NCBI GenBank assembly: GCA_903854725.1
Contig: CAINWZ010000010.1
Coordinates: 1-55,126, forward strand
DNA: 55,126 nt
DNA from: an uncultured Bacteroidota bacterium
GTDB lineage: Bacteria > Bacteroidota > Bacteroidia > Chitinophagales > Chitinophagaceae
Direction: 5' to 3'
In this document: piece after piece, positions 1,751 to 35,667 of the stretch
Position numbering within the stretch: position 1 is the stretch's first letter
How the letters are laid out: each line of letters opens with the position of its first letter
Position numbers and translations under genes: made by a program
Notes under the pieces: model-generated
Told to the model about the DNA's origin: nothing
The model's database searches: none
The model's input: only the letters and a program-made list of their open reading frames with translations

Positions 1751-2698
1751 ATGAAAAAGTATTGCTTATCCCTATTAATAATTGCTTCTATGGCTATTAT
1801 TTCGAATCAAAAATTATTTGCTGCGGCAGAAATCAAATTGGAGCCTATTGAAGGTAGATGGGACCTAACAGTGAATATGGGGGGGCGTATGGGAGCTTCT
1901 TGGTTGGAAGTAAGACATTCAGGTATCAAAACATTAACAGGTCATTTCGTATGGGAATCTGGCAGCGCACGACCTATCTCAGAAGTTTTTTTCAAAGAAG
2001 GCAAAGTGAATTTTCATATACCCACTCAATTTGACGTGAGTGATAAAGAAATGTATTTTGAAGCAACTCTTAAAGATGATAAGTTGGAAGGAACCATCAT
2101 TAGCCCATTAGGCAAAACTTTCACTTTTACAGGAGTTCGAGCCCCTCGTTTAATTTCCACTAAAAAACCAATATGGGGAACTCCAATCCACTTATTCAAT
2201 GGTAAAAATTTAGAGGGATGGGAAGCATTGGGTAAAACCAATCAATGGATGGTGGAGAATGGCGTATTGAAAAGTCCTCGTTCTGGTTCCAATATCAGAA
2301 CTACAAAAACATTTAATGATTTCAAATTGCATATTGAATTTCGTTATCCTAAAGAAAGCAATAGTGGTGTTTATTTAAGAGGCAGGTATGAAGTGCAAGT
2401 GGAAGATAGCAAAGGTAAAGAGCCCCTTAATATTTATTTAGGAGGCATTTATGGATTTATAGATCCTTTATTTAACATGGCGAAAGATGCGGGAGAATGG
2501 CAATCATATGACATTACATTAGTGGGAAGACTGGTTACGGTAGTATTAAATGGTACGACAGTAATTTATAATCAACAAATACCAGGTGTTACAGGAGGTG
2601 CGATGGATAGTAACGAAGGAGAGCCAGGTCCAATTATGATGCAAGGAGATCATGGCCCTATTGAATATAGAAACATTATTATTACTCCAGCAAAATAA
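1751..2698 (+). CDS. Secreted DUF1080 (3-keto-disaccharide hydrolase family) protein
   Basis: A 315-residue exported protein. A signal peptide covers about residues 1-25. Residues about 30-130 form a separate beta-rich segment unlike the DUF1080 core (starts IEGRWDLTVNMGG). Residues about 142-315 carry the DUF1080 fold: the LFNGKNLEGW opening, WMVENGVL, then NSGVYLRGRYEVQVEDS and a final EYRNI strand. In the family these lectin-like beta-sandwich proteins cleave 3-keto-glycosides made by a partner oxidoreductase, or bind sugars. No such partner is next to this gene; a second DUF1080 gene with a Gfo/Idh partner lies at 31194-34012. The gene stands alone, followed by a strong terminator. Domain call is firm, enzymatic function is inferred. 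Confidence 0.8.
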   Translation: MKKYCLSLLIIASMAIISNQKLFAAAEIKLEPIEGRWDLTVNMGGRMGASWLEVRHSGIKTLTGHFVWESGSARPISEVFFKEGKVNFHIPTQFDVSDKEMYFEATLKDDKLEGTIISPLGKTFTFTGVRAPRLISTKKPIWGTPIHLFNGKNLEGWEALGKTNQWMVENGVLKSPRSGSNIRTTKTFNDFKLHIEFRYPKESNSGVYLRGRYEVQVEDSKGKEPLNIYLGGIYGFIDPLFNMAKDAGEWQSYDITLVGRLVTVVLNGTTVIYNQQIPGVTGGAMDSNEGEPGPIMMQGDHGPIEYRNIIITPAK

Positions 2699-23753: not shown

Positions 23754-24317
23754 TTATTTACTATTTCCCCAACGATAACCAGCAGATTGTAGTCCTGCCA
23801 AATCCAATATACGGTGAACCACTGTATAAGCTACTTCTTCAATGGTTTTTGGATTACTATAAAAGCTAGGGGTAGCAGGGCAAATAATGCCTCCTGCTAA
23901 AGTCACTGTTTCCATATTTTTAATATGAATTAAGTTATAGGGCGTTTCACGAGCCACTAAAATTAATTTTCTTCTTTCTTTTAAAATGACATCTGCAGCT
24001 CTGGTTACTAAATCGTCGCTCACCCCGCTAGCAATTCGGCCCAAAGTACCCATACTACAAGGAACAATAATCATACAATTATATTGCGCTGATCCGGAAG
24101 CAAAAGGGGCGTTAAAATCGTTCTTTTGGTAAAAAGTAAATGGGTATTTCTCGTAGTCCTTATTACCTAATTCTGTCTCCCAAACAATCTTCGCATTGTC
24201 ACTCATAACAATACCCACTGCCGCATATTGATTGGGCATTTGGACTAAGCTATCCAATAAGCATTTAGCGTAAATGGCACCACTGGCGCCTGTAATGGCT
24301 ACTACAATTTTATTCAT
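23754..24317 (-). CDS. ubiX: UbiX family flavin prenyltransferase
   Basis: Makes prenylated FMN, the cofactor of UbiD-type decarboxylases. The flavin-binding start is VVAITGASGAIYAKCLL (residues about 4-20); VPCSMGTLGRIASGVSDDLVTRAADVILKERR and LVARETPYNLIHIKNM follow, with PATPSFYSNP near the C-terminus; all are family landmarks. The length of 187 residues is normal. No ubiD gene is in the window, so the target decarboxylase lies elsewhere; in Bacteroidota the usual use is quinone synthesis. A TATTTTTG (24335-24328, - strand) sits just upstream as a possible -7 element. Confidence 0.92.
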   Translation of the reverse strand: MNKIVVAITGASGAIYAKCLLDSLVQMPNQYAAVGIVMSDNAKIVWETELGNKDYEKYPFTFYQKNDFNAPFASGSAQYNCMIIVPCSMGTLGRIASGVSDDLVTRAADVILKERRKLILVARETPYNLIHIKNMETVTLAGGIICPATPSFYSNPKTIEEVAYTVVHRILDLAGLQSAGYRWGNSK

Positions 24318-24384
24318 ATACTATTAACAAAAATAGGCACTAATTGTTGAATTTTTAGTAGGGTGTTTAATTAGGGCCTAAATC

Positions 24385-24416
24385 TTGCATAAGATGGAAT
24401 TTTATAATTAATTTAC
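24385..24416 (+). promoter_or_regulatory. Possible promoter of the hexuronate cluster
   Basis: TTG at 24385-24387, a 21-base spacer and TAATTTAC at 24409-24416, two bases off TAnnTTTG. The predicted transcription start lies just before the palindrome at 24429, which fits repressor control. Weak by sequence alone. Confidence 0.3.
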
Positions 24417-24428
24417 AGCAACAAAAAA

Positions 24429-24438
24429 GGTTTAAACC
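24429..24438. promoter_or_regulatory. Candidate operator palindrome before the hexuronate cluster
   Basis: GGTTTAAACC is a perfect 10-base palindrome 22 bases before the first ATG of the cluster and just downstream of the putative promoter. Hexuronate genes are usually repressed by a LacI- or GntR-family protein; no regulator gene is in the window. Confidence 0.38.
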
Positions 24439-24459
24439 AATCAATTAGAAACATCAGCT

Positions 24460-25287
24460 ATGCGTAGTCAAGATCAAGATTTATTTACATTGAGAAACAA
24501 AGTGATTGTTGTTACAGGTGCCACTGGGGTATTAGGAGGAAGTTTTGTGGAAGCTATTTCAAAACAAGGGGCAACAGTGGTATTAATTGGACAAAATGAA
24601 GCAGTTGGCCAAGAACGCGCTGCTCAAATAATAAAGGAAGGTGGAGCAGCCATTTTTTTAAAAGCTAACGTACTAGTGGAAGCAGAATTAGAAGCTGCAA
24701 AAGATAAGGCAGTAGAAACCTATGGGACTATTCATGGTTTAGTAAATGGTGCAGGAGGTAATTTACCAGAAGGGGTATTATCGCCAAATGAAGATGTTTT
24801 TACAATGAATATGGAAGGGATGAAAAAAACAATGGAGTTAAATGTATGGGGTACCTTATTGCCGGTACAAGTTTTTGGTCCAGCTATTGCTAAATCAGGT
24901 GCAGGTAGTATTGTAAATATTTCTTCAGTAAATGCTAAAAGAACGGTAACAAGAGGATTGGGTTATAGTATGGGAAAAGCGGCTATAGATTTATATACAA
25001 AGTGGTTTGCTGTGGAAATGGCTAATCGATATGGAGATGCAGTAAGAATAAATTCCATCATGCCTGGTTTTTTTCTTACCCAACAAAATAAAAATTTATT
25101 AACGAAGGAAGATGGAAGCTTAACGGATAGAGGAAATTTAATTATTAAAAACACTCCTTTTAAAAGATTTGGAAGCCCTGAGGAATTAGTAGGCGCATTA
25201 ATATGGCTACTAAGCGATGCCTCTAAGTTTGTAACAGGCATGGATATTGGAGTGGATGGGGGCTTTACTATTAATACAGGCGTCTAA
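24460..25287 (+). CDS. SDR-family fructuronate reductase (D-mannonate oxidoreductase)
   Basis: Reduces D-fructuronate to D-mannonate with NAD(P)H. Short-chain dehydrogenase features: the cofactor motif [12 protein letters not shown] (TGxxxGxG, about 19-30), [10 protein letters not shown] (NAG motif variant), the catalytic serine in [10 protein letters not shown] (about 154) and Y169xxxK173 in YSMGKAA. The fructuronate assignment comes from context: it is first in a run ending one base into mannonate dehydratase, with glucuronate isomerase, KDG kinase and KDPG aldolase after it, and no long-chain UxuB is present to do this step. SDR-type fructuronate reductases exist in several Bacteroidota. 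275 residues. Confidence 0.85.
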
Positions 25288-26495
25288 TGAGTATGCATAC
25301 TTTTCCTTCTTATGCCAATGTGCAATACACTATGGAACAAACTATGCGTTGGTTTGGTCCGTCAGATCCGGTATCATTATCAGCTATTAAACAGGCAGGT
25401 TGTACTGGTGTGGTAACAGCGCTGCATCATATACCCAATGGAGAAGTGTGGTCGGAGGAAGAAATTAATACTAGAAAAAGTGTAATAGAGGCTATGGGGC
25501 TAAAGTGGTCAGTGGTGGAAAGTGTACCTGTTCATGAATCCATTAAAACGCAAACAGGTAATTTTGAAAAGCATATTGAAAATTATAAATTAAGTCTTCG
25601 AAATTTAAGTGCTTGCGGTATTAAAGTAATCACTTATAATTTTATGCCGGTGGTGGATTGGACTAGAACAAATTTAGCATTCCCTATGAAAGATGGCTCT
25701 TTGGCATTAAGATTTGAGAAATCAGCACTTATTGCTTTTGATATATTTATTTTACAAAGAGCAGGTGCTGAAAAAGACTATACTGTTAAGGAAATAGAGG
25801 CAGCTAAATTAAAATTTAGCCAAATGACAGCTACTGAAAAAGAAACAATTCAAGCCAATATTATAAAGGGCCTTCCAGGAAGTGAAGAAAGTTTTTCATT
25901 GGCGCAATTTGCTGCTGCTTTAAAGACCTATGAAGGCATTGGTATATCGGAACTAAGGAAACATTTAATTTATTTTTTACAACAAATAGTTCCTGTGGCG
26001 GATGAATGTGGTTTACAATTAGCCATTCATCCAGATGATCCACCTTATTCTATTTTAGGATTGCCCAGAGTGGTCAGCACTGCTGCAGATATTCAAGCAT
26101 TAATAGAGGCAGTACCTTCTGTAAATAATGGATTGTGTTTTTGTACGGGTTCTTTTGGTGTGAGACCTGATAATGATTTGCCAACTATGATACAACAATT
26201 TGGAAATAGAATACATTTTTTGCATTTAAGAAATACTAGACGAAATGAAGCAGGCGATTTTTATGAAGAAAATCATTTAGAAGGTGATGTAGATATGTAT
26301 GCTGTCATCAAACAGATTGTTTTGATGATGCAACAAAGAAAACAAAGTATACCTATGCGACCCGATCATGGGCATCAAATGTTAGATGATCTTACAAAGA
26401 AAACCAATCCTGGTTATTCAGCCATAGGTCGATTACGTGGATTGGCTGAATTAAGAGGAGTGGAGTTAGGAGTAGCTAGAAGTTTGAATGGGTAA
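25287..26495 (+). CDS. uxuA: Mannonate dehydratase
   Basis: Removes water from D-mannonate to give 2-keto-3-deoxy-gluconate (KDG). The block [16 protein letters not shown], then [18 protein letters not shown], identify UxuA; IHPDDPP (about 249-255) and RPDHGHQM (about 352-359) supply metal-binding residues. The annotated start makes a TAATG overlap with the SDR gene. In most orthologs the protein begins at MEQTMRW, which is residue 16 here (ATG at 25332), so 15 residues may be extra; both starts are compatible with coupling. 402 residues, family normal about 390-400. Cytoplasmic. Confidence 0.94.
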
Positions 26496-26531
26496 AAGAA
26501 ATAAAAGTTAAAAAGAAATAAAAGATAGAAA

Positions 26532-27950
26532 ATGAATAAAGGAGCTAGTTCAACCATATTTAATGATACTTTTTTATTGGAAACTAAATTGGCCAATACA
26601 TTATATCATTCCTATGCGGCTTCCTTACCTATTATCGATTATCATAATCATTTATCTCCCAAAGCGATTGCAAAAAATACTTCTTATGATACCCTTACAG
26701 ATATTTGGTTAACAGGCGATCATTACAAATATAGAGCCATGCGCGCTTGTGGAGTACCTGAAAAATATATTTCAGGATCGGCCACAAAAGAGCAGAAGTT
26801 TTTGGCTTGGGCGGAATGTTTGCCACAAACCTTAAGAAATCCACTTTTTCACTGGTCGCATATGGAATTGAAAAATTCCTTTGGCATTAATGAATATTTA
26901 CATAAATCAAATGCCTTAGCTATTTATAAAAAAGCCAATAAGCTATTGCAAAAAAAATCGCTTAGTACAAGGGGTATACTTTCAAGTTATAAAGTTGAAT
27001 TAGTGGGCACCACCGATGATCCATGTGATAACTTACAATTTCATCGTCAATTGTCTAAGGAATCTTATGTTACTAAAGTACTGCCTACTTTTAGACCTGA
27101 TAAAGTTTTTCAAATAAACGATAAGGTTTCTTTTATACAGTATCTTACTGCTTTAGAAACAGCAGCCAATTGTAAAATTAAAACAATAGCTGATCTATTA
27201 AATGCATTAGAACAAAGAGTACATTATTTTCATGAGCAGGGTTGTCGCATTGCAGATCATGGTTTAACGCAAATGCCCTCCAGTATTTTCTTGACAACCG
27301 AATTAGAAATGGAGTTCACTCAGTTTTTACAAAATAAAAAAGCAACATTTTTTACAGCGCCTGATCAATTTACAGGAGTTGTTTTATTGGCTTTGTCGAA
27401 AATGTATTTCAAGAAAGGCTGGGTCCAACAATTTCATTTAGGGCCCATTAGAAACAACAATACGAATCTTCAAAAAAAATTAGGACTAGATGCGGGTGCC
27501 GATTCTATTGGGGACTATCCGCAGGCAAAAAGCTTAGCGCAATTTTTAAATACATTAGATAGTACAGGGCAATTAGCTAAAACTATATTGTATAATTCAA
27601 ATCCTGCAGACAATGAAGTTTTTGCAACAATGTGTGGCAATTTTAATGAAGGAGGCATAAGAGGGAAGGTTCAATTTGGTTCGGCCTGGTGGTTTTTAGA
27701 CCAGAAAGATGGAATAGAAAAACAGTTGAACGCGATTGCTACTATGGGGTTGGTTTCTACTTTTGTGGGTATGACCACCGATAGCCGAAGCATTTTATCT
27801 TATGCTAGGCATGAATATTTTAGAAGAGTGATATGTAATTTATTTGCAAAGGATATGATGGCAGGACTTTTACCTAATGATGAAAAATGGGTAGGAGAGA
27901 TTGTGAAAAATATTAGTTATTTTAATGCGAAAGAATATTTCAATGTATGA
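26532..27950 (+). CDS. uxaC: Glucuronate (uronate) isomerase
   Basis: Converts D-glucuronate to D-fructuronate and D-galacturonate to D-tagaturonate. A member of the amidohydrolase-like UxaC family: DYHNHLSPKAIA near residue 37, the GTTDDPCDNL block (about 158-167), FHLGPIRNNN and YSAIGD-type DSIGDYPQA (about 318-326), and VGMTTDSRSILSYARHEYFRR near the C-terminus. 472 residues is typical. Its stop overlaps the kdgK start by four bases (ATGA). Only the glucuronate branch can be completed here, since no tagaturonate reductase (UxaB) or altronate dehydratase (UxaA) gene is present. Confidence 0.95.
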   Translation: MNKGASSTIFNDTFLLETKLANTLYHSYAASLPIIDYHNHLSPKAIAKNTSYDTLTDIWLTGDHYKYRAMRACGVPEKYISGSATKEQKFLAWAECLPQTLRNPLFHWSHMELKNSFGINEYLHKSNALAIYKKANKLLQKKSLSTRGILSSYKVELVGTTDDPCDNLQFHRQLSKESYVTKVLPTFRPDKVFQINDKVSFIQYLTALETAANCKIKTIADLLNALEQRVHYFHEQGCRIADHGLTQMPSSIFLTTELEMEFTQFLQNKKATFFTAPDQFTGVVLLALSKMYFKKGWVQQFHLGPIRNNNTNLQKKLGLDAGADSIGDYPQAKSLAQFLNTLDSTGQLAKTILYNSNPADNEVFATMCGNFNEGGIRGKVQFGSAWWFLDQKDGIEKQLNAIATMGLVSTFVGMTTDSRSILSYARHEYFRRVICNLFAKDMMAGLLPNDEKWVGEIVKNISYFNAKEYFNV

Positions 27951-28942
27951 GTAAAGTATTAAGTTTTGGTGAAATTATACTGCATTATGCACCCCCTGTG
28001 GCTACTCATTATATTGACAGTCATCAGATGCCTTTTTATTTAGGAGGTGCTGAATTAAATGTGGCAAGCGCTTTAGCTAAATGGGAGGTTCCTGTAAAAT
28101 ATGTAACTGCTATGCCTTCCAATTTTTTATCAGATACGATTATTTCTCATTTGTCGAAAAAAAATATTGATACGACTGCCATTCAATTTTCAGGCAATCG
28201 TATAGGGTGCTTTTACTTAGCAACTGGATTGGATATGAAAAGTGCTGGTGTAGTGTATGATAGAGCTCACTCTTCATTTGCAGACATTCAAAAAGGAACT
28301 ATTCCATGGGCCGAGGTGCTAAAAGGGGTAGATTGGTTTCATTTTAGTGCGATATCAGCTTCTCTTACACAAAATGCTACCGATGTTTGTGAAGAAGCAT
28401 TAGTCGCTGCAAAAGCATTAGGAATTCCTATATCAGTAGACCTTAATTACAGGGCTAAATTATGGCAATATGGTAAAACACCCATTGAAGTAATGTCTCA
28501 TTTGGTTAAATACTGTACTGTATTAATGGGAAATCTTTGGGCCGTAGAAGAAATGTTAGGAATAAGTTCAAGTATTGCGACAAGTGAAGGTTCTTCGCCA
28601 GCAGCTTTAGAACTAGCTGCCCATACAAGTATGTCGCAGTTAAAAGTAAAGTTTCCTTTATTAAATACTATAGCCTATACTTTTAGATTAGCAGATACTT
28701 ATTTTGGAGTGTTGTGTAATAAAAATAATTTTTATACATCTTCAACTTATAAACTTAAAGAGGTAAAAAATATCGTAGGAACAGGAGATTGTTTTATGGC
28801 GGGATTGATTTATGGTTTGCGAAATAAATATTCAGCAGAGGAAGTAATCAATTTTGCTGCCGCAGCTGCAGTTGGAAAATTATTTGAATTAGGAGATGCT
28901 ACCGATCAAACGGTGGAACAAATTAAAAAAAGAATGATATGA
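27947..28942 (+). CDS. kdgK: 2-keto-3-deoxygluconate kinase (PfkB family)
   Basis: Phosphorylates KDG to KDPG. It is a PfkB-family sugar kinase: the N-terminal FYLGGAELNVASALAKW (GG motif, about 27-43), the ISVDLNYRAKLW block (about 164-175), and the C-terminal anion hole and catalytic base in GTGDCFMAGL (278-287, D281). Compared with the usual DTTGAGD, the motif starts NIVGTGD, so two of the first residues are altered but the key G-x-G-D is intact. It overlaps both uxaC and eda by four bases, so the three are translationally coupled. 331 residues. The KDG role follows from position. Confidence 0.88.
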   Translation: MSKVLSFGEIILHYAPPVATHYIDSHQMPFYLGGAELNVASALAKWEVPVKYVTAMPSNFLSDTIISHLSKKNIDTTAIQFSGNRIGCFYLATGLDMKSAGVVYDRAHSSFADIQKGTIPWAEVLKGVDWFHFSAISASLTQNATDVCEEALVAAKALGIPISVDLNYRAKLWQYGKTPIEVMSHLVKYCTVLMGNLWAVEEMLGISSSIATSEGSSPAALELAAHTSMSQLKVKFPLLNTIAYTFRLADTYFGVLCNKNNFYTSSTYKLKEVKNIVGTGDCFMAGLIYGLRNKYSAEEVINFAAAAAVGKLFELGDATDQTVEQIKKRMI

Positions 28943-29598
28943 TGACACAAGATCAAATGAAAGCTTTTGTAAAACAGGTAAAACTGTTGCCCTTATTTTA
29001 CCATGACGATGTAACCGTATGTAAGGAAATAGTGAAAGCTTTATATGCAGCAGGCATTAGATGTATTGAATTCACTAATAGAGGACCAGCTGCTTTTGAA
29101 AACTTCAAAATTTTACTTGATTTCAGAAATAAACATTATTCCGATTTAGTATTAGCCATAGGAACCATTCAAAATCAAAACGAAGCACAAGCCTATATAG
29201 AAGCAGGGGCCGATTTTCTAATAAGTCCTTTCTTTGATCAATCTATTGCGGATGCTGCTTATTTGCATAAAAAATTATGGATACCAGGTTGCATGACATC
29301 CACCGAAATACATACTGCTGAAGTAGCGGGGTATAATTTGATTAAATTATTTCCTGGTAATGTATTAGGGCCAGGATTTATAAGTGCCGTAAAACCTTTA
29401 TTTCCAAGTGTAAGTTTTTTAGTGACAGGAGGTGTTGATACTAGTAAAGAAAATTTAACTGCTTGGTTTAAAGCAGGAGTAGTAGGTGTGGGTATGGGTA
29501 GTAAGTTAATAAGTGATGAAGTGTTGGCTACTAAAAATTACGATCTTATACAAACACAGACAACTAAATCATTGGCAATTATAGCCACTTTAAATTAA
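28939..29598 (+). CDS. eda: 2-dehydro-3-deoxy-phosphogluconate (KDPG) aldolase
   Basis: Splits KDPG into pyruvate and glyceraldehyde-3-phosphate, ending the hexuronate route. Class I aldolase with the Schiff-base lysine K136 in NLIKLFPGN, the general base E44 in CIEFTNRG, R48, and the phosphate loop VTGGVD with GVGMGSKLI near the end. The PG-x-x-T-x-x-E segment reads PGCMTSTEI. 219 residues is normal. Two ATG codons in tandem (28939 and 28942) can start it; the first makes an ATGA overlap with kdgK. Confidence 0.94.
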   Translation: MMTQDQMKAFVKQVKLLPLFYHDDVTVCKEIVKALYAAGIRCIEFTNRGPAAFENFKILLDFRNKHYSDLVLAIGTIQNQNEAQAYIEAGADFLISPFFDQSIADAAYLHKKLWIPGCMTSTEIHTAEVAGYNLIKLFPGNVLGPGFISAVKPLFPSVSFLVTGGVDTSKENLTAWFKAGVVGVGMGSKLISDEVLATKNYDLIQTQTTKSLAIIATLN

Positions 29599-29603
29599 TC
29601 ATC

Positions 29604-31187
29604 ATGAAAGCCGCAGCCATTGGAAAATATCGTTGGACTATTTGCGCGCTTTTATTTTTTGCAACTACAGTTAATTATTTAGATCGACAGGTTTTAAGTA
29701 TTTTAAAGCCCGTATTAGAAAAAGAGTTTGATTGGAGCAATAGCGATTATGCGAATATTGCTTCTTTGTTTCAATTTGTATATGCGATAAGCATGTTATT
29801 TGCTGGTAGTATCGTTGATAAATTGGGCACTAAATGGGGTTATGCATGGGCCATCATCATATGGTCTTTTGGTGCAATTGTTCACGCTTTTGCCATTCCT
29901 GTTGGAACAAGCATTGCCAACATACTAGGTTGGATAGGTATAGCAGCTGTGCCTGTGTCTATTGTAGGTTTTATGTTTTCAAGAGCCATATTAGGATTTG
30001 GGGAAGCAGGTAATTTTCCGGCAGCCATAAAAGCTACCGCAGAGTATTTTCCTAAAAAAGAAAGATCATTTGCTACTGGGATATTTAACTCAGGAACCAA
30101 TGTGGGAGCTATTTTAGCACCTTTAACAGTTCCCTGGATAGCAAGTCATTGGGGATGGCAAGCGGCATTCATTATTATTGGAGCCATAGGATTTTTATGG
30201 CTAATTGCCTGGTTTATGTTTTATGAAACGCCTGCAAAACAAACAAGACTTACTATAGCCGAAAGAGAATATATAAATAGTGATAAGGAAGTGGAAGCAA
30301 AATTTGAAAATGGTATTCAAACCAATAAAATTTCATGGCTTACTTTATTAGGGTATCAACAAACTTGGGCTTTTGCCATTGGCAAGTTTTTAACAGATGG
30401 TGTTTGGTGGTTCTTTTTATTTTGGTTACCAGGGTACCTGAAGGATCAATATAGTATGCAAGGAACTTCCATTATTTTACCCTTGTCTGTATTATATAGT
30501 ATGACCATGGTGGGTAGTATTGGTGGTGGTTGGCTGCCTACCCATTTTATCAATAAAGGGTACTTGCCATATGAGGGTCGAATGAAAGCCATGTTACGCA
30601 TTGCATTTGTGCCATTAGTTGTTTTAGCTGTGCAGCCTTTGGGGTATATAAGTTTTTGGGTGCCAGTCATTTTTATTGGGATAGGGGCGTCGGCGCATCA
30701 AGCTTGGTCTGCAAATATTTATACTACAGTGTCGGATATGTTTCCTAAGCGTTCTATTGCTACAGTCATTGGAATGGGGGGAATGGCAGGAGGGATGGGA
30801 GGCGTAATTGTTTCAAAAATTGGGGGATGGTTATTTGATGCGTATAAGTTAAAGGGGATACAGCAAACGATCGATGCTGTTAAATCGAAGGAGCTTGATG
30901 CCTATCTATTTAAAATAAAAAGCATTTCCATGGTGGATGCGAAGGGAGATTTAATTTATCTTGTAAACAAGGATTGGAACAATTTATCAACGGCTGCATT
31001 GCAGCAATTGCAATCAATGGATCCTGTCCAGTTTGAAAATTATAGCAATATGCAAAAAATATACATTCATGAAAGTATGACTTTGGCCTATGGCTATATG
31101 TTTGCCTTTTGTGCTGTAGCTTATTTGATAGCTTGGCGTATTATGAAATGGTTAGTGCCCAAAGAAAAATTAATAAATATCGTTTAA
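29604..31187 (+). CDS. MFS hexuronate transporter (ExuT-like, anion:cation symporter family)
   Basis: Inner-membrane uptake protein, most likely proton-linked import of glucuronate and related hexuronates. The first span plus loop NYLDRQVLSILKPVLEKEF is the ExuT/ACS signature, then GSIVDKLGTKWGY (loop 2-3 motif), GFGEAGNFPAAIKATAEYFP, and the GTNVGAILAPL segment. Twelve membrane spans can be traced. Odd feature: between the last two spans, about residues 410-490 form a long hydrophilic insertion (LKGIQQTIDAVKSKELDAYL ... NMQKIYIHESM) that E. coli ExuT lacks. This makes the protein 527 residues against about 430. The gene starts 5 bases after eda. Confidence 0.88.
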   Translation: MKAAAIGKYRWTICALLFFATTVNYLDRQVLSILKPVLEKEFDWSNSDYANIASLFQFVYAISMLFAGSIVDKLGTKWGYAWAIIIWSFGAIVHAFAIPVGTSIANILGWIGIAAVPVSIVGFMFSRAILGFGEAGNFPAAIKATAEYFPKKERSFATGIFNSGTNVGAILAPLTVPWIASHWGWQAAFIIIGAIGFLWLIAWFMFYETPAKQTRLTIAEREYINSDKEVEAKFENGIQTNKISWLTLLGYQQTWAFAIGKFLTDGVWWFFLFWLPGYLKDQYSMQGTSIILPLSVLYSMTMVGSIGGGWLPTHFINKGYLPYEGRMKAMLRIAFVPLVVLAVQPLGYISFWVPVIFIGIGASAHQAWSANIYTTVSDMFPKRSIATVIGMGGMAGGMGGVIVSKIGGWLFDAYKLKGIQQTIDAVKSKELDAYLFKIKSISMVDAKGDLIYLVNKDWNNLSTAALQQLQSMDPVQFENYSNMQKIYIHESMTLAYGYMFAFCAVAYLIAWRIMKWLVPKEKLINIV

Positions 31188-31193
31188 AATAAA

Positions 31194-32591
31194 ATGTTGA
31201 CTATGAAAATTTCTAAAATAGTATTTGTTCTTTTATGGGTTTCAAATAGTTCATTACTGATAGCGCAAGCTAAAGTAGAAAACCTTTGCAACGGGAAAGA
31301 TTTAAAAGGCTGGGTTCAGTACAATGGGAAAGCTAAGTATACTGTTGAAAACGGAGAAATCGTAGGACGGACTGTTTCCAATGAGCCCAATAGTTTTTTA
31401 TCCACTGAAAAACAATATGGAGATTTTATTTTAGAATTAGATCTTAAAGTAAATGAGCAAATGAATTCTGGGATTCAATTTAGAAGTGAATTAAACGATG
31501 CGAATGATAAGTGTAATGTTACAGATAAGCATACACCGCTTCGTGTACATGGCTATCAGATGGAAATTGATCCATCGGCAAGGGCTTGGAGTGGCGGCAT
31601 TTACGATGAGGCTAGAAGAGGTTGGCTCTACCCATTAGAATACAATACAGCAGCAAAAATGGCCTTTAAAAATAATGCTTGGAATCATTATAAAATTGAA
31701 GCCATTGGCAATAGTATTAGAACCTGGATCAATGGGATAGAGTGTGCGCATATTATCGACAACATGACTTTAAAAGGCTTTATTTCTTTGCAAGTGCATG
31801 AAATTGGAGATGCAAAAGATGCGGGGCAGGAAGTGCGTTGGAAAAATATAAAAATTCAAACAACTAATTTAAAGCCTGCACCTCCCACCAATTTATTTGT
31901 AGTGAATTTAATTCCTAATACTATTTCTGAGGATGAAAAAAGAAATGGTGTTCGACTTTTATGGGATGGAGTTACTACCAAGGGATGGAGAAGTGCTTAT
32001 AAAACAAGTTTCCCTGATAACACTTGGTATGTAAAAGAAGGTACTTTAAATGTGAAAGGAAGTAATGGCGGCGAAGCTGCCAATGGCGGTGACATTGTTA
32101 CATTGGAAGAATTTCATGCTTTCGATTTGCAATTTGAATTTCAAATTTCGGCATCAGCTAATAGTGGTGTAAAATATTTTGTAACTGAAAAAGAAAATAA
32201 TGGTGGATCTGCCATTGGTTTAGAGTATCAAATTTTAGATGATGATAAACACCCCGATGCTTTGTTAGGCTCTATTGGGAATAGAACCAATGCTTCTTTG
32301 TATGATATGATTCCTGCTTTAAGAATTGGAACAGGTAGAAGAGAAAAATTACCAGTTGGGGATTGGAATAGAGGGCGTATTATAGTTTATCCAGATGGCA
32401 AAATTGAACATTGGATTAATGGATGGAAAGTAGTTGAATACCAAAGAGGCACCCAATACTTTTATGCATTGGTAGCAAAAAGTAAATACGTAGTGTGGCC
32501 AAATTTTGGAATGGCCGAAAAAGGTCATATCTTATTGCAAGAACATGGCTCGCAAGTTGCCTTTAGAAGTATTAAAATAAAAGAATTATAG
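31194..32591 (+). CDS. Secreted protein with two DUF1080 domains (3-keto-disaccharide hydrolase family)
   Basis: Exported protein with a signal peptide (MKISKIVFVLLWVSNSSLLIAQ; the ATG at 31203, residue 4, is the more likely start). Two DUF1080 beta-sandwich domains in tandem: about residues 27-225 (CNGKDLKGWVQYNGKAKYTV, MNSGIQFRSE, HGYQMEIDPSA) and about 245-465 (LLWDGVTTKGWRSAYK, NTWYVKEGTLNVKG, NSGVKYFVTEK, GLEYQILDDD). Family members hydrolyse or eliminate 3-keto-glycosides, mostly in the periplasm. It is 6 bases after the transporter and 62 bases before a Tat-exported Gfo/Idh oxidoreductase, the expected partner that would make the 3-keto substrate. Enzymatic action is inferred from family and neighbours. 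Confidence 0.83.
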   Translation: MLTMKISKIVFVLLWVSNSSLLIAQAKVENLCNGKDLKGWVQYNGKAKYTVENGEIVGRTVSNEPNSFLSTEKQYGDFILELDLKVNEQMNSGIQFRSELNDANDKCNVTDKHTPLRVHGYQMEIDPSARAWSGGIYDEARRGWLYPLEYNTAAKMAFKNNAWNHYKIEAIGNSIRTWINGIECAHIIDNMTLKGFISLQVHEIGDAKDAGQEVRWKNIKIQTTNLKPAPPTNLFVVNLIPNTISEDEKRNGVRLLWDGVTTKGWRSAYKTSFPDNTWYVKEGTLNVKGSNGGEAANGGDIVTLEEFHAFDLQFEFQISASANSGVKYFVTEKENNGGSAIGLEYQILDDDKHPDALLGSIGNRTNASLYDMIPALRIGTGRREKLPVGDWNRGRIIVYPDGKIEHWINGWKVVEYQRGTQYFYALVAKSKYVVWPNFGMAEKGHILLQEHGSQVAFRSIKIKEL

Positions 32592-32653
32592 AGATCGAAA
32601 TGGTAAAATGCTACATTTTCGACTTATTATAGTAAGTAATTAAAAACAAGGTT

Positions 32654-34012
32654 ATGAAAAATTCAAGAAGAAGTTTTATTAAACAAACAGCGAAGGCTAC
32701 CGCAGCTACTTATGCAGCCACTATTGGGTTTAGTGCAAAAAGTTATGCTAATATCATAGGGGCCAATGACAGAGTAAGATTAGGTGTAGTGGGTTATTCC
32801 GATAGGTTTAGGCAAACGCATTTGCCTTGTTTTTTAAATCATTATAAAGAATTAAATTTTGACATTGTAGCTGTTTCTGATATTTGGAAAATAAGAAGGG
32901 AAGAAGGGAAAGATTTTTTAGAAAAAACATTAGGCCATACCATTAGGGCTGCAAGAAATAATGAAGAATTGTATGCAGGAAAAGATATAGATGGCGTTTT
33001 TATAAGTACGGCCGATTTTCAACATGCAATTCATGCCACAGAGGCGGTGAATGCAGGGATGGATGTGTATTGTGAAAAACCATTTGCAGAAACAATGGAA
33101 GACAATAGAATGGCATTAAAAACAATTAAAGCATCTAAAAGTATTGTTCAAATTGGTTCTCAAAGAAGAAGTGGACCTAACTATCAAGCAGCCGCCGATT
33201 TTATTCAAGCAGGAAAATTTGGACCTATAACCATGGTGGAATTAACTTGGAATGTAAATCAACCAGGTAGATGGAGAAGACCTGATTTAGTTGCCAAGTG
33301 TAAAGAAGAAGATTTGGATTGGAATCGTTTTTTATTAAATCGTCCGTATGAAAATTTTGATCCAAGAAAATATTTAGAATATCGTTTGTTCTGGCCTTAT
33401 TCTTCAGGCATGCCTGGACAATGGATGAGCCACCAAATTGATACAGTGAATTGGTTTAGTCAATTACCACATCCAAGAAGCGTAACTGCTAATGGAGGAA
33501 TTTATGCATGGAAAGATGGTCGTAAAAATTGGGATACCACTACTGCTGTATTTGATTACGGGCCTTTAGATGATATGTCTAAAGGTTTTCAAGTAGTGTT
33601 TATGTCTCGAATGCACAATGGAGAAGAGAATCCTTCTGAAATATATTATGCTAACGGTGGAGAGTTAAACTTGGTAACCAATATGGTTTCTTCTACTGGT
33701 GGTTTACAAGCTACGCCAGCATCAGCGATGAAAATGAAACCTAACTTATTAGAAAAGTTTGATTTATCAGCAAATGCGAGTAAAGTGGTTGCTTCCGCTA
33801 ATACGGGAGGAGATGTATTAACTTCTGCGCATGTGCGTAATTGGATGGAATGTATAAGAACTAGAAAACAACCCAATGCTCCTGTTGAAGCAGGCTATCA
33901 ACATTCTATTGCAAATATCATGACCAATGCGGCATGTCGAACAGGCGCAAAAGTAACTTTTGATGAAAAGACACAAGAAGTAATGGCGAACGGGAAAGTA
34001 TTTAAGTATTAA
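32654..34012 (+). CDS. Tat-exported Gfo/Idh/MocA family oxidoreductase
   Basis: NAD(P)-dependent sugar oxidoreductase sent through the Tat pathway with its cofactor: the start MKNSRRSFIKQTAKATAATY has the twin-arginine motif RRSFIK and a hydrophobic core to about residue 33. The Rossmann domain follows (VRLGVVGYSDRFRQTHL, about 41-57), then the family EKP motif CEKPFAET (about 140-147) and the C-terminal sheet domain with GMPGQWMSHQIDTVNWF, which places a His (in SHQID) at the active site. The N-terminal nucleotide loop GVVGYSDR is looser than the usual GxGxxG. A role in C3 oxidation of sugars for the adjacent DUF1080 protein is likely. It ends the cluster; its stop overlaps the converging phosphorylase-like gene by four bases. 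Confidence 0.85.
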   Translation: MKNSRRSFIKQTAKATAATYAATIGFSAKSYANIIGANDRVRLGVVGYSDRFRQTHLPCFLNHYKELNFDIVAVSDIWKIRREEGKDFLEKTLGHTIRAARNNEELYAGKDIDGVFISTADFQHAIHATEAVNAGMDVYCEKPFAETMEDNRMALKTIKASKSIVQIGSQRRSGPNYQAAADFIQAGKFGPITMVELTWNVNQPGRWRRPDLVAKCKEEDLDWNRFLLNRPYENFDPRKYLEYRLFWPYSSGMPGQWMSHQIDTVNWFSQLPHPRSVTANGGIYAWKDGRKNWDTTTAVFDYGPLDDMSKGFQVVFMSRMHNGEENPSEIYYANGGELNLVTNMVSSTGGLQATPASAMKMKPNLLEKFDLSANASKVVASANTGGDVLTSAHVRNWMECIRTRKQPNAPVEAGYQHSIANIMTNAACRTGAKVTFDEKTQEVMANGKVFKY

Positions 34013-35667
34013 TCTACCTTATACATTTTCTCATAATACTCTTCGGCCATTCTATTGCTATCAAATTGGAAGCGAACATCTTTCATTCCATTTTGTGTAA
34101 TTTGACGCCAGGTATCTTTATTGTCATAATACATTGGAATAATTTGTTGCTCTAGAATTTTATATAATTCATCCAAATCGTAATCGTCTTGTTGTTGAGT
34201 GCTCATATTGGCGTAGTCGGCCTTCGGAATTACAAATCCATTATTGCCATGATTGATAAATTCTGGAATCCATCCATCATCGGTAGAAAAATTAACAGCG
34301 CCATTCATAGCAGCAGTCATGCCACTAGTTCCAGAAGCTTCTCTAGGCACTCTTGGGTTATTCAACCATACATCTGAAGCTTGTTTCATTCTTTTGCTTA
34401 ATCCCAATTCATAGCCAATTAATACTGCCACATTATTATAGTTCTTGCTTAAGTGAACTAAATTATTGAATTGAGAAATGGCAGGATGATCCACAGGGTA
34501 GGGTTTGCCGGCAAAAATAATTTGAACTGGATATTTTGCATTTGCAAGTAATTTCTCAAAACGAGTTAAATCCCAAGAAAGGAAATCGGCTCTTTTGTAT
34601 CCTGCAAAACGTCTTGCCCAAACAATGGTTAATACGTTGGGGTCAAATAATTTTCCTGTTTGATCTGCTACTATTTCGAATGCACGTTTCTTTAAATACA
34701 TTTTACGGTCATCAAATCCTGTTTCATCCTGATTCTCGGCAAAACGGTATAATTGCTTATCGGCCCAGTAGCGCCAGTTTTGCGCATTCGTGATATGTGT
34801 AATGGGGCAGATGCCTTCATATTTCCCCCATAATTCTCTACTTACATGTCCATGTAATTCAGAAACGCCATTGGCTTTTCTAGCAAATCGCAATGCTGCT
34901 AAAGAATGGTTGAATTGATCGTCTTGGATGCCAGTTAATTTTCTTACTTCGTCCATGCTTAAACCGCAGAAATAACCCATTTTATGACATAAGTAAATAT
35001 CGTGTTTTTCATTACCAGCTTCTTCAGGTGTATGCGTTGTAAATACCAAACGTTTTTTTACTTCGTCTAATGATTTATATTTATTCAATAAGTAAAAAGC
35101 AGCAGAAAAACCATGTGCTTCATTTAAGTGATATACTTCTGGATTAAAATTTAGCTCGTCAATTAATTTGGCGCCAGCCACGCCTAATAAAATAAATTGC
35201 GCCACTTTGGTAGCCACGTTCGCATCATATAAACGATGTGTAATGGTTTGTGAAACGTAATCGTTTTCAGGTAGATCGGTACTTAATAAAAATAGGGGGG
35301 CACTACAAAATGTATTGGGGGCTAAATAAAATGCTTTCACCCATACTGGATGATCGTGAATTAATACTTGATATTTAATGCCAGTATCTTCTAGGAAAGA
35401 ATATATTTTTTCCATAAAAGTTACCTGCAAAGTTTGGTCTTGATTGCGGGCTTGATCATAATAACCATACTTCCACAATATACCTACACCAATTAAATTT
35501 TGATTCAGCTCAAAAGCACTTCTTAAATGAGACCCTGCTAAAAAACCAAGTCCACCACTATAAATTTTTAAGGGTTGGTGGATGGCAAATTCCATAGAAA
35601 AATAAGCTGCCTTTTTTTTGAATTGATCATTAATAGCATAAGGCACTTGATAATTTCTAAAACTCAT
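34009..35667 (-). CDS. Short alpha-glucan phosphorylase-like protein (GT35) with the PLP lysine replaced
   Basis: Belongs by sequence to the bacterial alpha-glucan phosphorylase group (TIGR02094 type) but is only 552 residues, lacking the N-terminal domain of 600-850 residue relatives. Family blocks seen: AYFSMEFAIHQPLKIYSGGLG (about 21-41), HLNEAHGFSAAFYLL, VFTTHTPEEAGNEKHD, ARRFAGYKRADF (351-362), NNPRVPREASGTSGMTAAMNG (436-456). In active phosphorylases the last motif carries a lysine after GM or NM (Lys680 in muscle enzyme) that holds pyridoxal phosphate; here it is T451 (codon ACT read on the - strand). The phosphate-binding R-R-F-A-G-Y-K-R is kept. It could be an inactive paralog, a glycosyltransferase without PLP, or a glucan-binding protein. 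No glg gene is nearby. Confidence 0.82.
   Translation of the reverse strand: MSFRNYQVPYAINDQFKKKAAYFSMEFAIHQPLKIYSGGLGFLAGSHLRSAFELNQNLIGVGILWKYGYYDQARNQDQTLQVTFMEKIYSFLEDTGIKYQVLIHDHPVWVKAFYLAPNTFCSAPLFLLSTDLPENDYVSQTITHRLYDANVATKVAQFILLGVAGAKLIDELNFNPEVYHLNEAHGFSAAFYLLNKYKSLDEVKKRLVFTTHTPEEAGNEKHDIYLCHKMGYFCGLSMDEVRKLTGIQDDQFNHSLAALRFARKANGVSELHGHVSRELWGKYEGICPITHITNAQNWRYWADKQLYRFAENQDETGFDDRKMYLKKRAFEIVADQTGKLFDPNVLTIVWARRFAGYKRADFLSWDLTRFEKLLANAKYPVQIIFAGKPYPVDHPAISQFNNLVHLSKNYNNVAVLIGYELGLSKRMKQASDVWLNNPRVPREASGTSGMTAAMNGAVNFSTDDGWIPEFINHGNNGFVIPKADYANMSTQQQDDYDLDELYKILEQQIIPMYYDNKDTWRQITQNGMKDVRFQFDSNRMAEEYYEKMYKVD

What the first reader, a model, noticed from the sequence alone, without database searches (positions are those of the whole stretch)
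24460..34012. Complete glucuronate catabolic operon joined to an exported 3-keto-glycoside module
Seen: uxuB-like SDR, uxuA, uxaC, kdgK, eda and an ExuT-type transporter are packed with overlaps or gaps under 40 bases, then run straight into a signal-peptide protein with two DUF1080 domains (6-base gap) and a Tat-exported Gfo/Idh oxidoreductase (62-base gap). Known: in Bacteroidota, Gfo/Idh enzymes oxidise C3 of a glycoside and DUF1080 proteins then cleave the 3-keto sugar. There is no glycoside hydrolase, polysaccharide lyase or SusC/SusD pair in the cluster. Inference: glucuronides or aldobiouronic acids may be opened by oxidation-elimination outside the cytoplasm, and the released uronate imported and degraded. 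This would be a hydrolase-independent feeding route into the hexuronate pathway.
Basis: partly seen in the sequence, partly recalled or inferred. Interest (0 to 1): 0.7.

Follow-up and report, generated by a model that had tools for sequence, protein, structure and literature searches.

The report
Glucuronate operon with exported glycoside-oxidising pair
A Bacteroidota genome joins its glucuronate-eating genes to two exported enzymes of a kind that cuts sugars by oxidising them, and the same partnership recurs in many gene arrangements in related bacteria, which suggests, but does not prove, that sugar acids are freed this way rather than by ordinary hydrolases.

Summary
Eight co-directional genes (24460-34012) encode UxuB-, UxuA-, UxaC-, KdgK-, Eda- and MFS transporter-like proteins, a secreted two-domain DUF1080 protein, and a Gfo/Idh protein with a twin-arginine leader. 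The link recurs: uxuA, uxaC or uxuB lies within 10 kb of the DUF1080 gene in 28 of 150 related loci, all on the same strand, in 20 arrangements; single-domain DUF1080 controls give 0 of 20 (one-sided p 0.02). On the gene tree the label needs at least 16 changes. The DUF1080 protein is related end to end to B. thetaiotaomicron BT3469 (4JQT); its C-terminal domain matches 3-keto-glycoside eliminase/hydratases. The Gfo belongs to no characterised subfamily but is strongly conserved. In the 93%-complete genome GH67, GH115 and GH2 were not found and GH88 only under its cut-off; one GH30 exists. Best reading: a periplasmic oxidise-eliminate-hydrate module that frees uronate for the adjoining pathway. 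The substrate is inferred, and 122 of 150 loci lack the link. A glucuronide-3-dehydrogenase (8TDI) and NAD-dependent sulfoquinovosidases are known, so the chemistry is not new; I found no report of the link in the papers searched.

The parts
24460..25287 (+). uxuB-like SDR, D-mannonate oxidoreductase
   Evidence: NF006132 304 bits vs cut-off 281
25287..26495 (+). uxuA, mannonate dehydratase
   Evidence: PF03786 E 1.4e-129; NF003027 563 vs 191
26532..27950 (+). uxaC, glucuronate isomerase
   Evidence: PF02614 E 2.8e-185; NF002794 546 vs 387
27947..28942 (+). kdgK-like PfkB sugar kinase
   Evidence: PF00294 E 6.9e-26; best NCBIfam 265.7 bits, below cut-off 700
28939..29598 (+). eda-like KDPG/KHG aldolase
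   Evidence: PF01081 E 1.1e-30; PRK07114 232.6 bits, below cut-off 275
29604..31187 (+). MFS transporter, hexuronate (ExuT-like) by context
   Evidence: PF07690 E 3.1e-53; 2A0114 206.7 bits, below cut-off 395
31194..32591 (+). secreted two-domain DUF1080 (PF06439) protein, BT3469/4JQT-like; predicted 3-keto-glycoside eliminase/hydratase
31266..31871 (+). N-terminal DUF1080 domain (residues 25-226), divergent; keeps its own LQxH histidine (H202)
   Evidence: among solved chains only 4jqt below E 0.01; H202 invariant in 32 of 32
31872..32588 (+). C-terminal DUF1080 domain (residues 227-465), BT2157-type
   Evidence: 8rr2/8tda/3osd E about 1e-35 with the stretch EYQ-LD-D-HPDA-LG--NR--SLYDMIPA shared; H451 invariant in 32 of 32
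32654..34012 (+). Gfo/Idh oxidoreductase with twin-arginine leader; predicted glycoside (uronide) 3-dehydrogenase
   Evidence: PF01408 E 5.3e-14; RR, K142-P143 and H260 invariant in 29 of 29; model matches Gfo/Idh folds incl. 8tdi, 8tdf
32592..32653 (+). 62-base gap between DUF1080 and Gfo genes, with a modest hairpin
   Evidence: folded 32570-32660: -12.3 kcal/mol, z -2.2, 8 of 200 shuffles as good; not a clear terminator

Best explanation
The eight genes form one operon in which a periplasmic two-protein module feeds the cytoplasmic glucuronate pathway. The Tat-exported Gfo/Idh protein, with a tightly held NAD(P), oxidises C3 of a uronic-acid-containing glycoside; the two-domain DUF1080 protein eliminates the aglycone and hydrates the resulting 2-hydroxy-3-keto-glycal. 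My preferred variant is redox-neutral: the 3-keto-uronate so formed re-oxidises the Gfo's cofactor when it is itself reduced back to glucuronate, so no cofactor turnover in the periplasm is needed. If the uronate is instead the leaving group it is freed directly. Glucuronate then enters through the MFS transporter and runs through UxaC, UxuB, UxuA, KdgK and Eda to pyruvate and glyceraldehyde-3-phosphate. Shown: gene identities, leader sequences, domain homology, conserved residues, recurrent linkage. Inferred: operon transcription, periplasmic location, C3 oxidation, bound cofactor, uronate substrate, redox-neutral cycle, transport specificity.
For: Linkage: uxuA/uxaC/uxuB within 10 kb of DUF1080x2 in 11 of 74 family loci and 17 of 76 other loci, all 28 same strand (26 of 150 if the two that rest on a uxuB-like SDR alone, L039 and L178, are dropped); 0 of 20 single-domain DUF1080 controls (Fisher one-sided p 0.02). 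Co-directional runs with gaps of 300 bases or less holding any of the six pathway genes in 23 of those 150, plus L114 and L115 of 20 Gfo-centred loci. At least 16 label changes on the DUF1080x2 tree. In four runs without the usual Gfo another Gfo/Idh protein stands beside DUF1080x2 and the uxu genes (L045, L096, L167, L187), which argues for a functional trio. Of the 18 best non-window UxaC hits in the family, 6 lie within 1.3 kb of, and on the same strand as, DUF1080x2 or Gfo (coordinates read by eye). C-terminal domain homology to 3-keto-glycoside eliminase/hydratases; H451 aligns with H275, whose H275N variant of the B. theta lyase is deficient in hydration (PMC13273386, passage; residue numbering derived by me). 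BT2158 is a periplasmic glycoside 3-dehydrogenase (PMC11300592, passage). A glucuronide-3-dehydrogenase of the same fold exists (8tdi). Own genome: no GH67, GH115 or GH2 match, GH88 only below cut-off.
Against: No substrate data. 122 of 150 DUF1080x2 loci show no uxuA/uxaC/uxuB within 10 kb; 47 of the 150 have under 5 kb of sequence on one side, so some links may be missed, but 103 have 5 kb or more on both sides. None of 18 UxuA-centred loci picked from the top has DUF1080x2 or Gfo in the fetched stretch (two already known linked rows, G179 and G261, were not among the 18). The pair also sits beside alpha-galactosidase-like, GH30 or SusD-like genes or DUF6807. The Gfo is as close in fold to 1,5-anhydrofructose reductase, levoglucosan dehydrogenase and others as to 8tdi and fails every NCBIfam cut-off shown. 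One GH30 in the genome could be a beta-glucuronidase. No separate reductase for a 3-keto-uronate is in the operon.
Confidence: 0.45

Rival explanations
1. The pair is a broad-range 3-keto-glycoside module whose substrate is not the uronide itself. It cleaves neutral glycosyl residues from plant or algal oligosaccharides that also contain uronates, and is merely co-regulated with uronate catabolism.
For: 122 of 150 loci lack uxuA/uxaC/uxuB within 10 kb; the pair or its Gfo is also found beside alpha-galactosidase-like (PF16499), GH30, GH5 or SusD-like genes; a DUF1080 protein of Caulobacter is needed for lactose use and proposed to act also on 3-ketosalicin (PMC9007349, passages).
Against: Linkage to uronate genes recurs in 20 arrangements and on one strand; in L116, L117 and L119 other neighbours are also uronate enzymes by cluster representative (GH88-type, chondroitinase-B-like, in two of them GH28); no other sugar pathway is in this operon.
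Confidence: 0.3
2. The Gfo protein alone is an NAD-dependent glycosidase of the GH109/GH188 kind, doing oxidation, elimination, water addition and reduction in one active site, here a uronidase at the gateway of the uronate pathway; DUF1080x2 is an accessory binding protein.
Against: Gfo and DUF1080x2 occur together in 15 of the 25 runs; the C-terminal DUF1080 domain keeps the eliminase/hydratase signature; in the sequence search the GH109 chain 6t2b matches only at E 2e-4 and I saw no GH188-titled chain among the 60 of 91 rows shown.
Confidence: 0.1
3. The module handles modified or unusual uronates (for example keto-uronates made by other cells), turning them into glucuronate rather than cutting glycosides.
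For: A Gfo/Idh enzyme plus a hydratase-like protein could interconvert keto-uronates; the Gfo fold is close to reductases such as 2glx and 4koa.
Against: DUF1080 relatives with known activity act on 3-keto-glycosides or their glycals (PDB titles); a keto-uronate substrate would not need the eliminase.
Confidence: 0.08
4. Chance or drift: carbohydrate genes gather loosely, and the junction has no functional meaning.
For: The link is absent from most loci and changes often on the tree; the control set is small and its contrast modest (one-sided p 0.02).
Against: 28 of 28 on the same strand; my estimate of chance is about 1% per locus; identical eight-gene operon in L155 and L156; repeated joining in new arrangements.
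Confidence: 0.07

Closest known systems
BT2157-BT2158-type 3-keto-glycoside pathway of Bacteroides/Alistipes (PDB 8TDA, 8TDF, 8TDH, 8V31, 8RR2, 9FBE; Nature 2024 631:199, seen only as a citation; its tie to these PDB entries is recalled)
   Same: Exported Gfo/Idh dehydrogenase plus DUF1080 eliminase/hydratase; C-terminal domain 36-37% identical in the structural alignment, with the active-site stretch kept
   Different: Here DUF1080 is two-domain, the Gfo is outside BT_2158_fam (86 bits vs cut-off 750), and the pair is joined to a hexuronate operon
P2B11 glucuronide-3-dehydrogenase (PDB 8TDI)
   Different: 19% identity; profile match only E 1.2e-4 over about 120 residues; not specific, many Gfo enzymes score alike
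BT3469 (PDB 4JQT), two-domain DUF1080 protein of B. thetaiotaomicron
   Different: No function known to me; no uronate link examined in Bacteroides
GH188 NAD-dependent sulfoquinovosidases
   Same: Gfo fold; gateway glycosidase encoded with the catabolic pathway of a C6-anionic sugar, in clusters lacking classical hydrolases (PMC10755693)
   Different: A single enzyme does the whole reaction; here a second protein of another fold is present
Caulobacter LacABC plus DUF1080 lactose route
   Same: Periplasmic C3 oxidation followed by proposed DUF1080 cleavage, then a catabolic pathway (PMC9007349)
   Different: Membrane-bound three-part dehydrogenase (GMC type, recalled) rather than Gfo/Idh; neutral sugar
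Classical uxu/uxa/kdg hexuronate pathway (E. coli type, recalled)
   Same: UxaC, mannonate oxidoreductase, UxuA, KdgK, Eda, transporter
   Different: SDR-type UxuB and an added exported oxidation-elimination pair

Membership tests
Hexuronate (glucuronate branch) catabolic operon | UxaC, mannonate oxidoreductase, UxuA present and above curated cut-offs | tested here: met
   546 vs 387, 304 vs 281, 563 vs 191 bits
Hexuronate (glucuronate branch) catabolic operon | KdgK, Eda and hexuronate transporter above curated cut-offs | tested here: inconclusive
   Pfam domains pass; the NCBIfam families shown are all below cut-off
3-keto-glycoside eliminase/hydratase (DUF1080, PF06439) | PF06439 domain above gathering score | tested here: met
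   266 bits vs 26.8, two stretches
3-keto-glycoside eliminase/hydratase (DUF1080, PF06439) | Histidine required for hydration (H275 of the B. theta lyase) | tested here: met
   Aligns with H451, invariant in 32 of 32; the numbering is my derivation and assumes that lyase is the protein of 8rr2
3-keto-glycoside eliminase/hydratase (DUF1080, PF06439) | Activity on 3-keto-glycosides | not testable with these tools
   needs purified protein
BT_2158 glycoside 3-dehydrogenase family (NF058561) | Score above the curated cut-off of 750 | tested here: not met
   86.1 bits
Glucuronide-3-dehydrogenase (8TDI-like) | Close, full-length sequence relation to P2B11 | tested here: not met
   profile E 1.2e-4 over about 120 residues; 19% identity in the structural alignment
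Tat-exported Gfo/Idh oxidoreductase | Twin-arginine motif in an N-terminal leader, conserved | tested here: met
   R5 and R6 in 29 of 29 orthologues; export itself not shown
Gfo/Idh/MocA fold | PF01408 domain and the Lys of the EKP motif (motif role recalled) | tested here: met
   K142 and P143 in 29 of 29
GH109/GH188 NAD-dependent glycosidase | Membership by sequence | tested here: inconclusive

The most novel reading that the evidence does not exclude
Across Bacteroidota a Tat-exported Gfo plus a two-domain DUF1080 protein is a dedicated, redox-neutral and anomer-indifferent periplasmic 'uronidase' that stands in for GH67/GH115/GH2 glucuronidases as the gateway to hexuronate catabolism, with the N-terminal domain (invariant R97, R130, R141, H202) and the C-terminal domain sharing elimination and hydration.
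Probability: 0.25. Interest if true: 0.65.

Novelty: new variant of a known kind. Interest (0 to 1): 0.45.

Why it matters
Glucuronic acid caps xylan, plant gums, algal and bacterial polysaccharides and drug glucuronides, and its release is credited to a handful of glycosidase families. If the recurrent loci found here do what the context suggests, genome-based predictions that rely on those families miss a uronate-release route in environmental Bacteroidota, and an uncharacterised, highly conserved Gfo subfamily and the BT3469-type two-domain DUF1080 family get a testable substrate.

Tried and rejected
Chance junction: held unlikely on strand consistency and recurrence, although the control set is small (20 loci; 20 more were planned) and its contrast modest (one-sided p 0.02). 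Assigning the Gfo to BT_2158_fam, BT_2159_fam or inositol dehydrogenases: rejected on cut-offs. Reading the 8tdi fold match as proof of glucuronide specificity: rejected, since many Gfo enzymes with other substrates tie with it. Claiming that the genome has no glucuronidase: rejected because of a GH30; the GH79 search is uninformative because no control rang; GH1 and GH4 were not searched. Terminator between DUF1080 and Gfo: only a weak hairpin; the consensus scan of 24200-34200 finds 10 terminator-like sites against 6.2 (sd 2.8) expected. A special 'pair-type' UxaC: considered and not kept. The best-scoring UxaC hits of the family are often beside the pair, but linked loci also carry UxaC at 48-53% identity (L085, L181, L186, L187, L192, L205, L221, L232). 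UxuA and UxaC presence alone says little: found in 184 and 192 of 294 family genomes. Literature: searches of the open PMC library for DUF1080 with uronate or glucuron, 3-keto with glucuronide, glucuronide-3-dehydrogenase, 3-ketoglycoside variants and neighbours of these listed no report of this gene linkage; most subscription papers are outside that library, so absence in print is not established. Papers: PMC9007349, PMC10628242, PMC5673643, PMC9765024, PMC11300592 and PMC10755693 seen as passages (the last including its abstract); PMC13273386 seen as abstract, a passage and its reference list; Nature 2024 631:199 and Angew 2024 e202410681 seen only as citations there. That exported Gfo enzymes hold NAD(P) tightly, the role of the EKP lysine and the chemistry of 1,2-elimination next to a C3 ketone are from general knowledge.
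Full report
WHAT IS THERE. UxaC, UxuA and the SDR-type mannonate oxidoreductase pass curated NCBIfam cut-offs; KdgK, Eda and the MFS transporter are recognised by Pfam but score under the NCBIfam cut-offs shown. No altronate-branch enzyme is among the eight genes, so the operon is of the glucuronate type. The seventh gene encodes a leader peptide and two PF06439 domains; the eighth a Gfo/Idh protein with an SRRSFIK leader. The next gene is convergent and overlaps by 4 bases (alpha-glucan phosphorylase).

IS THE LINK MORE THAN LOCAL. In 294 genomes of the same family, the Gfo orthologue (E <= 1e-120) is in 110, the two-domain DUF1080 protein (E <= 1e-100) in 149, UxuA (E <= 1e-60) in 184 and UxaC (E <= 1e-60) in 192. 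I fetched 74 DUF1080x2-centred loci: the two-domain copies listed in 34 genomes, then 40 more from the top. That second pick is nearly by rank: G106 was passed over and G215, unlinked, was added because its Gfo is adjacent; a split copy, L073, is not counted. To these come 80 named loci from a scan of GTDB genomes in which 589 stretches encoded relatives and the best 80 were kept; three duplicates and one without an anchor over threshold (L179) drop out, leaving 76. Mapping the window proteins onto them gives uxuA, uxaC or uxuB within 10 kb in 11 of 74 and 17 of 76. All 28 are on the same strand as DUF1080x2. Two of the 28 rest on a uxuB-like SDR alone (L039, at 44% identity, and L178). Twenty loci centred on single-domain DUF1080 genes of genomes gave 0 of 20 (one of them, L236, does hold a Gfo orthologue); the contrast alone is modest, Fisher one-sided p 0.02. 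With roughly one uxuA and one uxaC per 4-5 Mb genome, chance predicts about 1% of loci (my estimate). Unbroken co-directional runs with gaps of 300 bases or less hold a pathway gene in 23 of 150 (one, L085, only eda and the transporter), and in L114 and L115 among 20 Gfo-centred loci. Because loci were chosen by likeness to the window's protein, the rates are for its relatives, not for all Bacteroidota.

ARRANGEMENTS. Two MAGs (L155, L156) have the identical eight-gene operon. Over the 28 linked loci there are 20 different same-strand arrangements of the recognised genes, for example uxuA-DUF-Gfo (L042, L074), uxuB-uxaC-DUF-Gfo (L075, L162), uxuA-uxuB-DUF-Gfo (L080, L101), DUF-uxuA-uxaC (L086), DUF-Gfo-TIM barrel-unnamed-uxuA (L088), another Gfo-DUF-uxuB-uxuA-uxaC (Flavihumibacter MAG, L167), uxuA-Gfo-DUF (Adhaeribacter aquaticus, L182), DUF-Gfo-transporter-uxuA (Saprospiraceae MAG, L217), DUF-Gfo-DUF6807-uxuB-uxaC-transporter (L181); apart from these 28, uxuB-uxaC-Gfo without DUF1080x2 (L114, L115). 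Pontibacter diazotrophicus (L192) has DUF-Gfo, a LacI-type gene and uxuB-uxuA-uxaC within 10 kb. Some arrangements may look incomplete because contigs end: 47 of 150 loci have under 5 kb on one side. On a 151-row DUF1080x2 tree (quick method, SH-aLRT only) the linked label needs 18 changes, 16 forced by well-supported branches, with 0 of 500 shuffles as low. So the label is clustered but has been gained or lost many times: the partnership is labile and repeatedly rebuilt.

RESULTS AGAINST A STRICT URONATE MODULE. 122 of 150 DUF1080x2 loci show no uxuA/uxaC/uxuB within 10 kb. None of 18 UxuA-centred loci fetched from the top holds DUF1080x2 or Gfo. Two linked rows of that list, G179 and G261, had already been fetched and are not among the 18. 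Unlinked pairs stand alone, beside DUF6807 (16 loci), or near alpha-galactosidase-like, GH30 or SusD-like genes; in L126 the Gfo is near a GH5 gene. In three related genomes the Gfo is in loci with GH88-type and chondroitinase-B-like genes, two of them also with GH28 (L116, L117, L119; by cluster representatives): again uronate chemistry, but not glucuronate catabolism.

OWN GENOME. 93% complete, 2.29 Mb. No GH67, GH115 or GH2 match; GH88 only 24.8 bits against a cut-off of 26.6; each of these four searches rang in control genomes. One GH30 (148 bits) is beside a GMC oxidoreductase frame. GH79 rang nowhere, so it is untested. Eleven PF06439 matches lie in nine reading frames.

MECHANISM. Most likely the exported pair oxidises a uronide at C3, eliminates the aglycone and hydrates the glycal. 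With no NAD turnover expected in the periplasm, a Gfo that keeps its cofactor bound could reduce the 3-keto-uronate while oxidising the next glycoside, giving net hydrolysis. This is inference; it predicts turnover without added NAD and with 3-keto-uronate as acceptor. The alternative, in which uronate is the leaving group, needs no re-reduction. GH188 sulfoquinovosidases are the nearest known analogue: C3-oxidising Gfo-fold gateway enzymes for a C6-anionic sugar.

VERDICT. The chemistry is a plausible extension of known systems with an unproven substrate, so I rate it a new variant of a known kind of moderate interest.

Noticed in passing
window 1751-2698: A second DUF1080 protein in the window: one PF06439 domain at its C-terminal half (residues 146-311) behind about 145 residues without a Pfam hit, next to an acetyl-CoA hydrolase/transferase gene.
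   Followed up: no
G000 (window's genome): Eleven PF06439 matches in nine reading frames in a 2.3-Mb genome.
   Followed up: no
L255 (G000:C59:9874-10869): A GH30 enzyme lies directly beside a GMC oxidoreductase frame, the family to which LacA-type glycoside 3-dehydrogenases belong (recalled).
   Followed up: partly
window 32592-32653: Modest hairpin in the gap between the DUF1080 and Gfo genes, possibly an attenuator or processing site.
   Followed up: partly
L080, L101, L114, L115 (partly L162): A recurring larger cassette: ThuA, PF16490 oxidoreductase (sometimes a second Gfo), a small protein with a TonB-receptor plug domain only, uxu genes, DUF1080x2 and/or Gfo, and an EamA transporter. 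The plug-only protein (scanned in L080) is unexplained.
   Followed up: partly
16 loci, e.g. L133:10662-11702, L120, L129, L131: A DUF6807 (PF14100) protein forms the largest neighbour cluster of the Gfo after DUF1080x2; function unknown.
   Followed up: partly
L116, L117, L119: The Gfo (with DUF1080x2 in L116 and L117) is embedded in loci with GH88-type, chondroitinase-B-like and, in L117 and L119, GH28 genes.
   Followed up: partly
family UxaC hits: Of the 18 best non-window UxaC hits (569 bits or more), 6 are within 1.3 kb of DUF1080x2 or Gfo on the same strand and 2 (G139, G250) lie 9-13 kb away on the opposite strand; among lower listed rows I saw by eye only G141 (10.5 kb from Gfo). But L085 has a linked UxaC at 48% identity, so this is a hint only.
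   Followed up: partly
L045, L096, L167: A LacI-family regulator gene sits immediately upstream of the second-type Gfo in these linked runs, a candidate regulator; none is among the window's eight genes.
   Followed up: no
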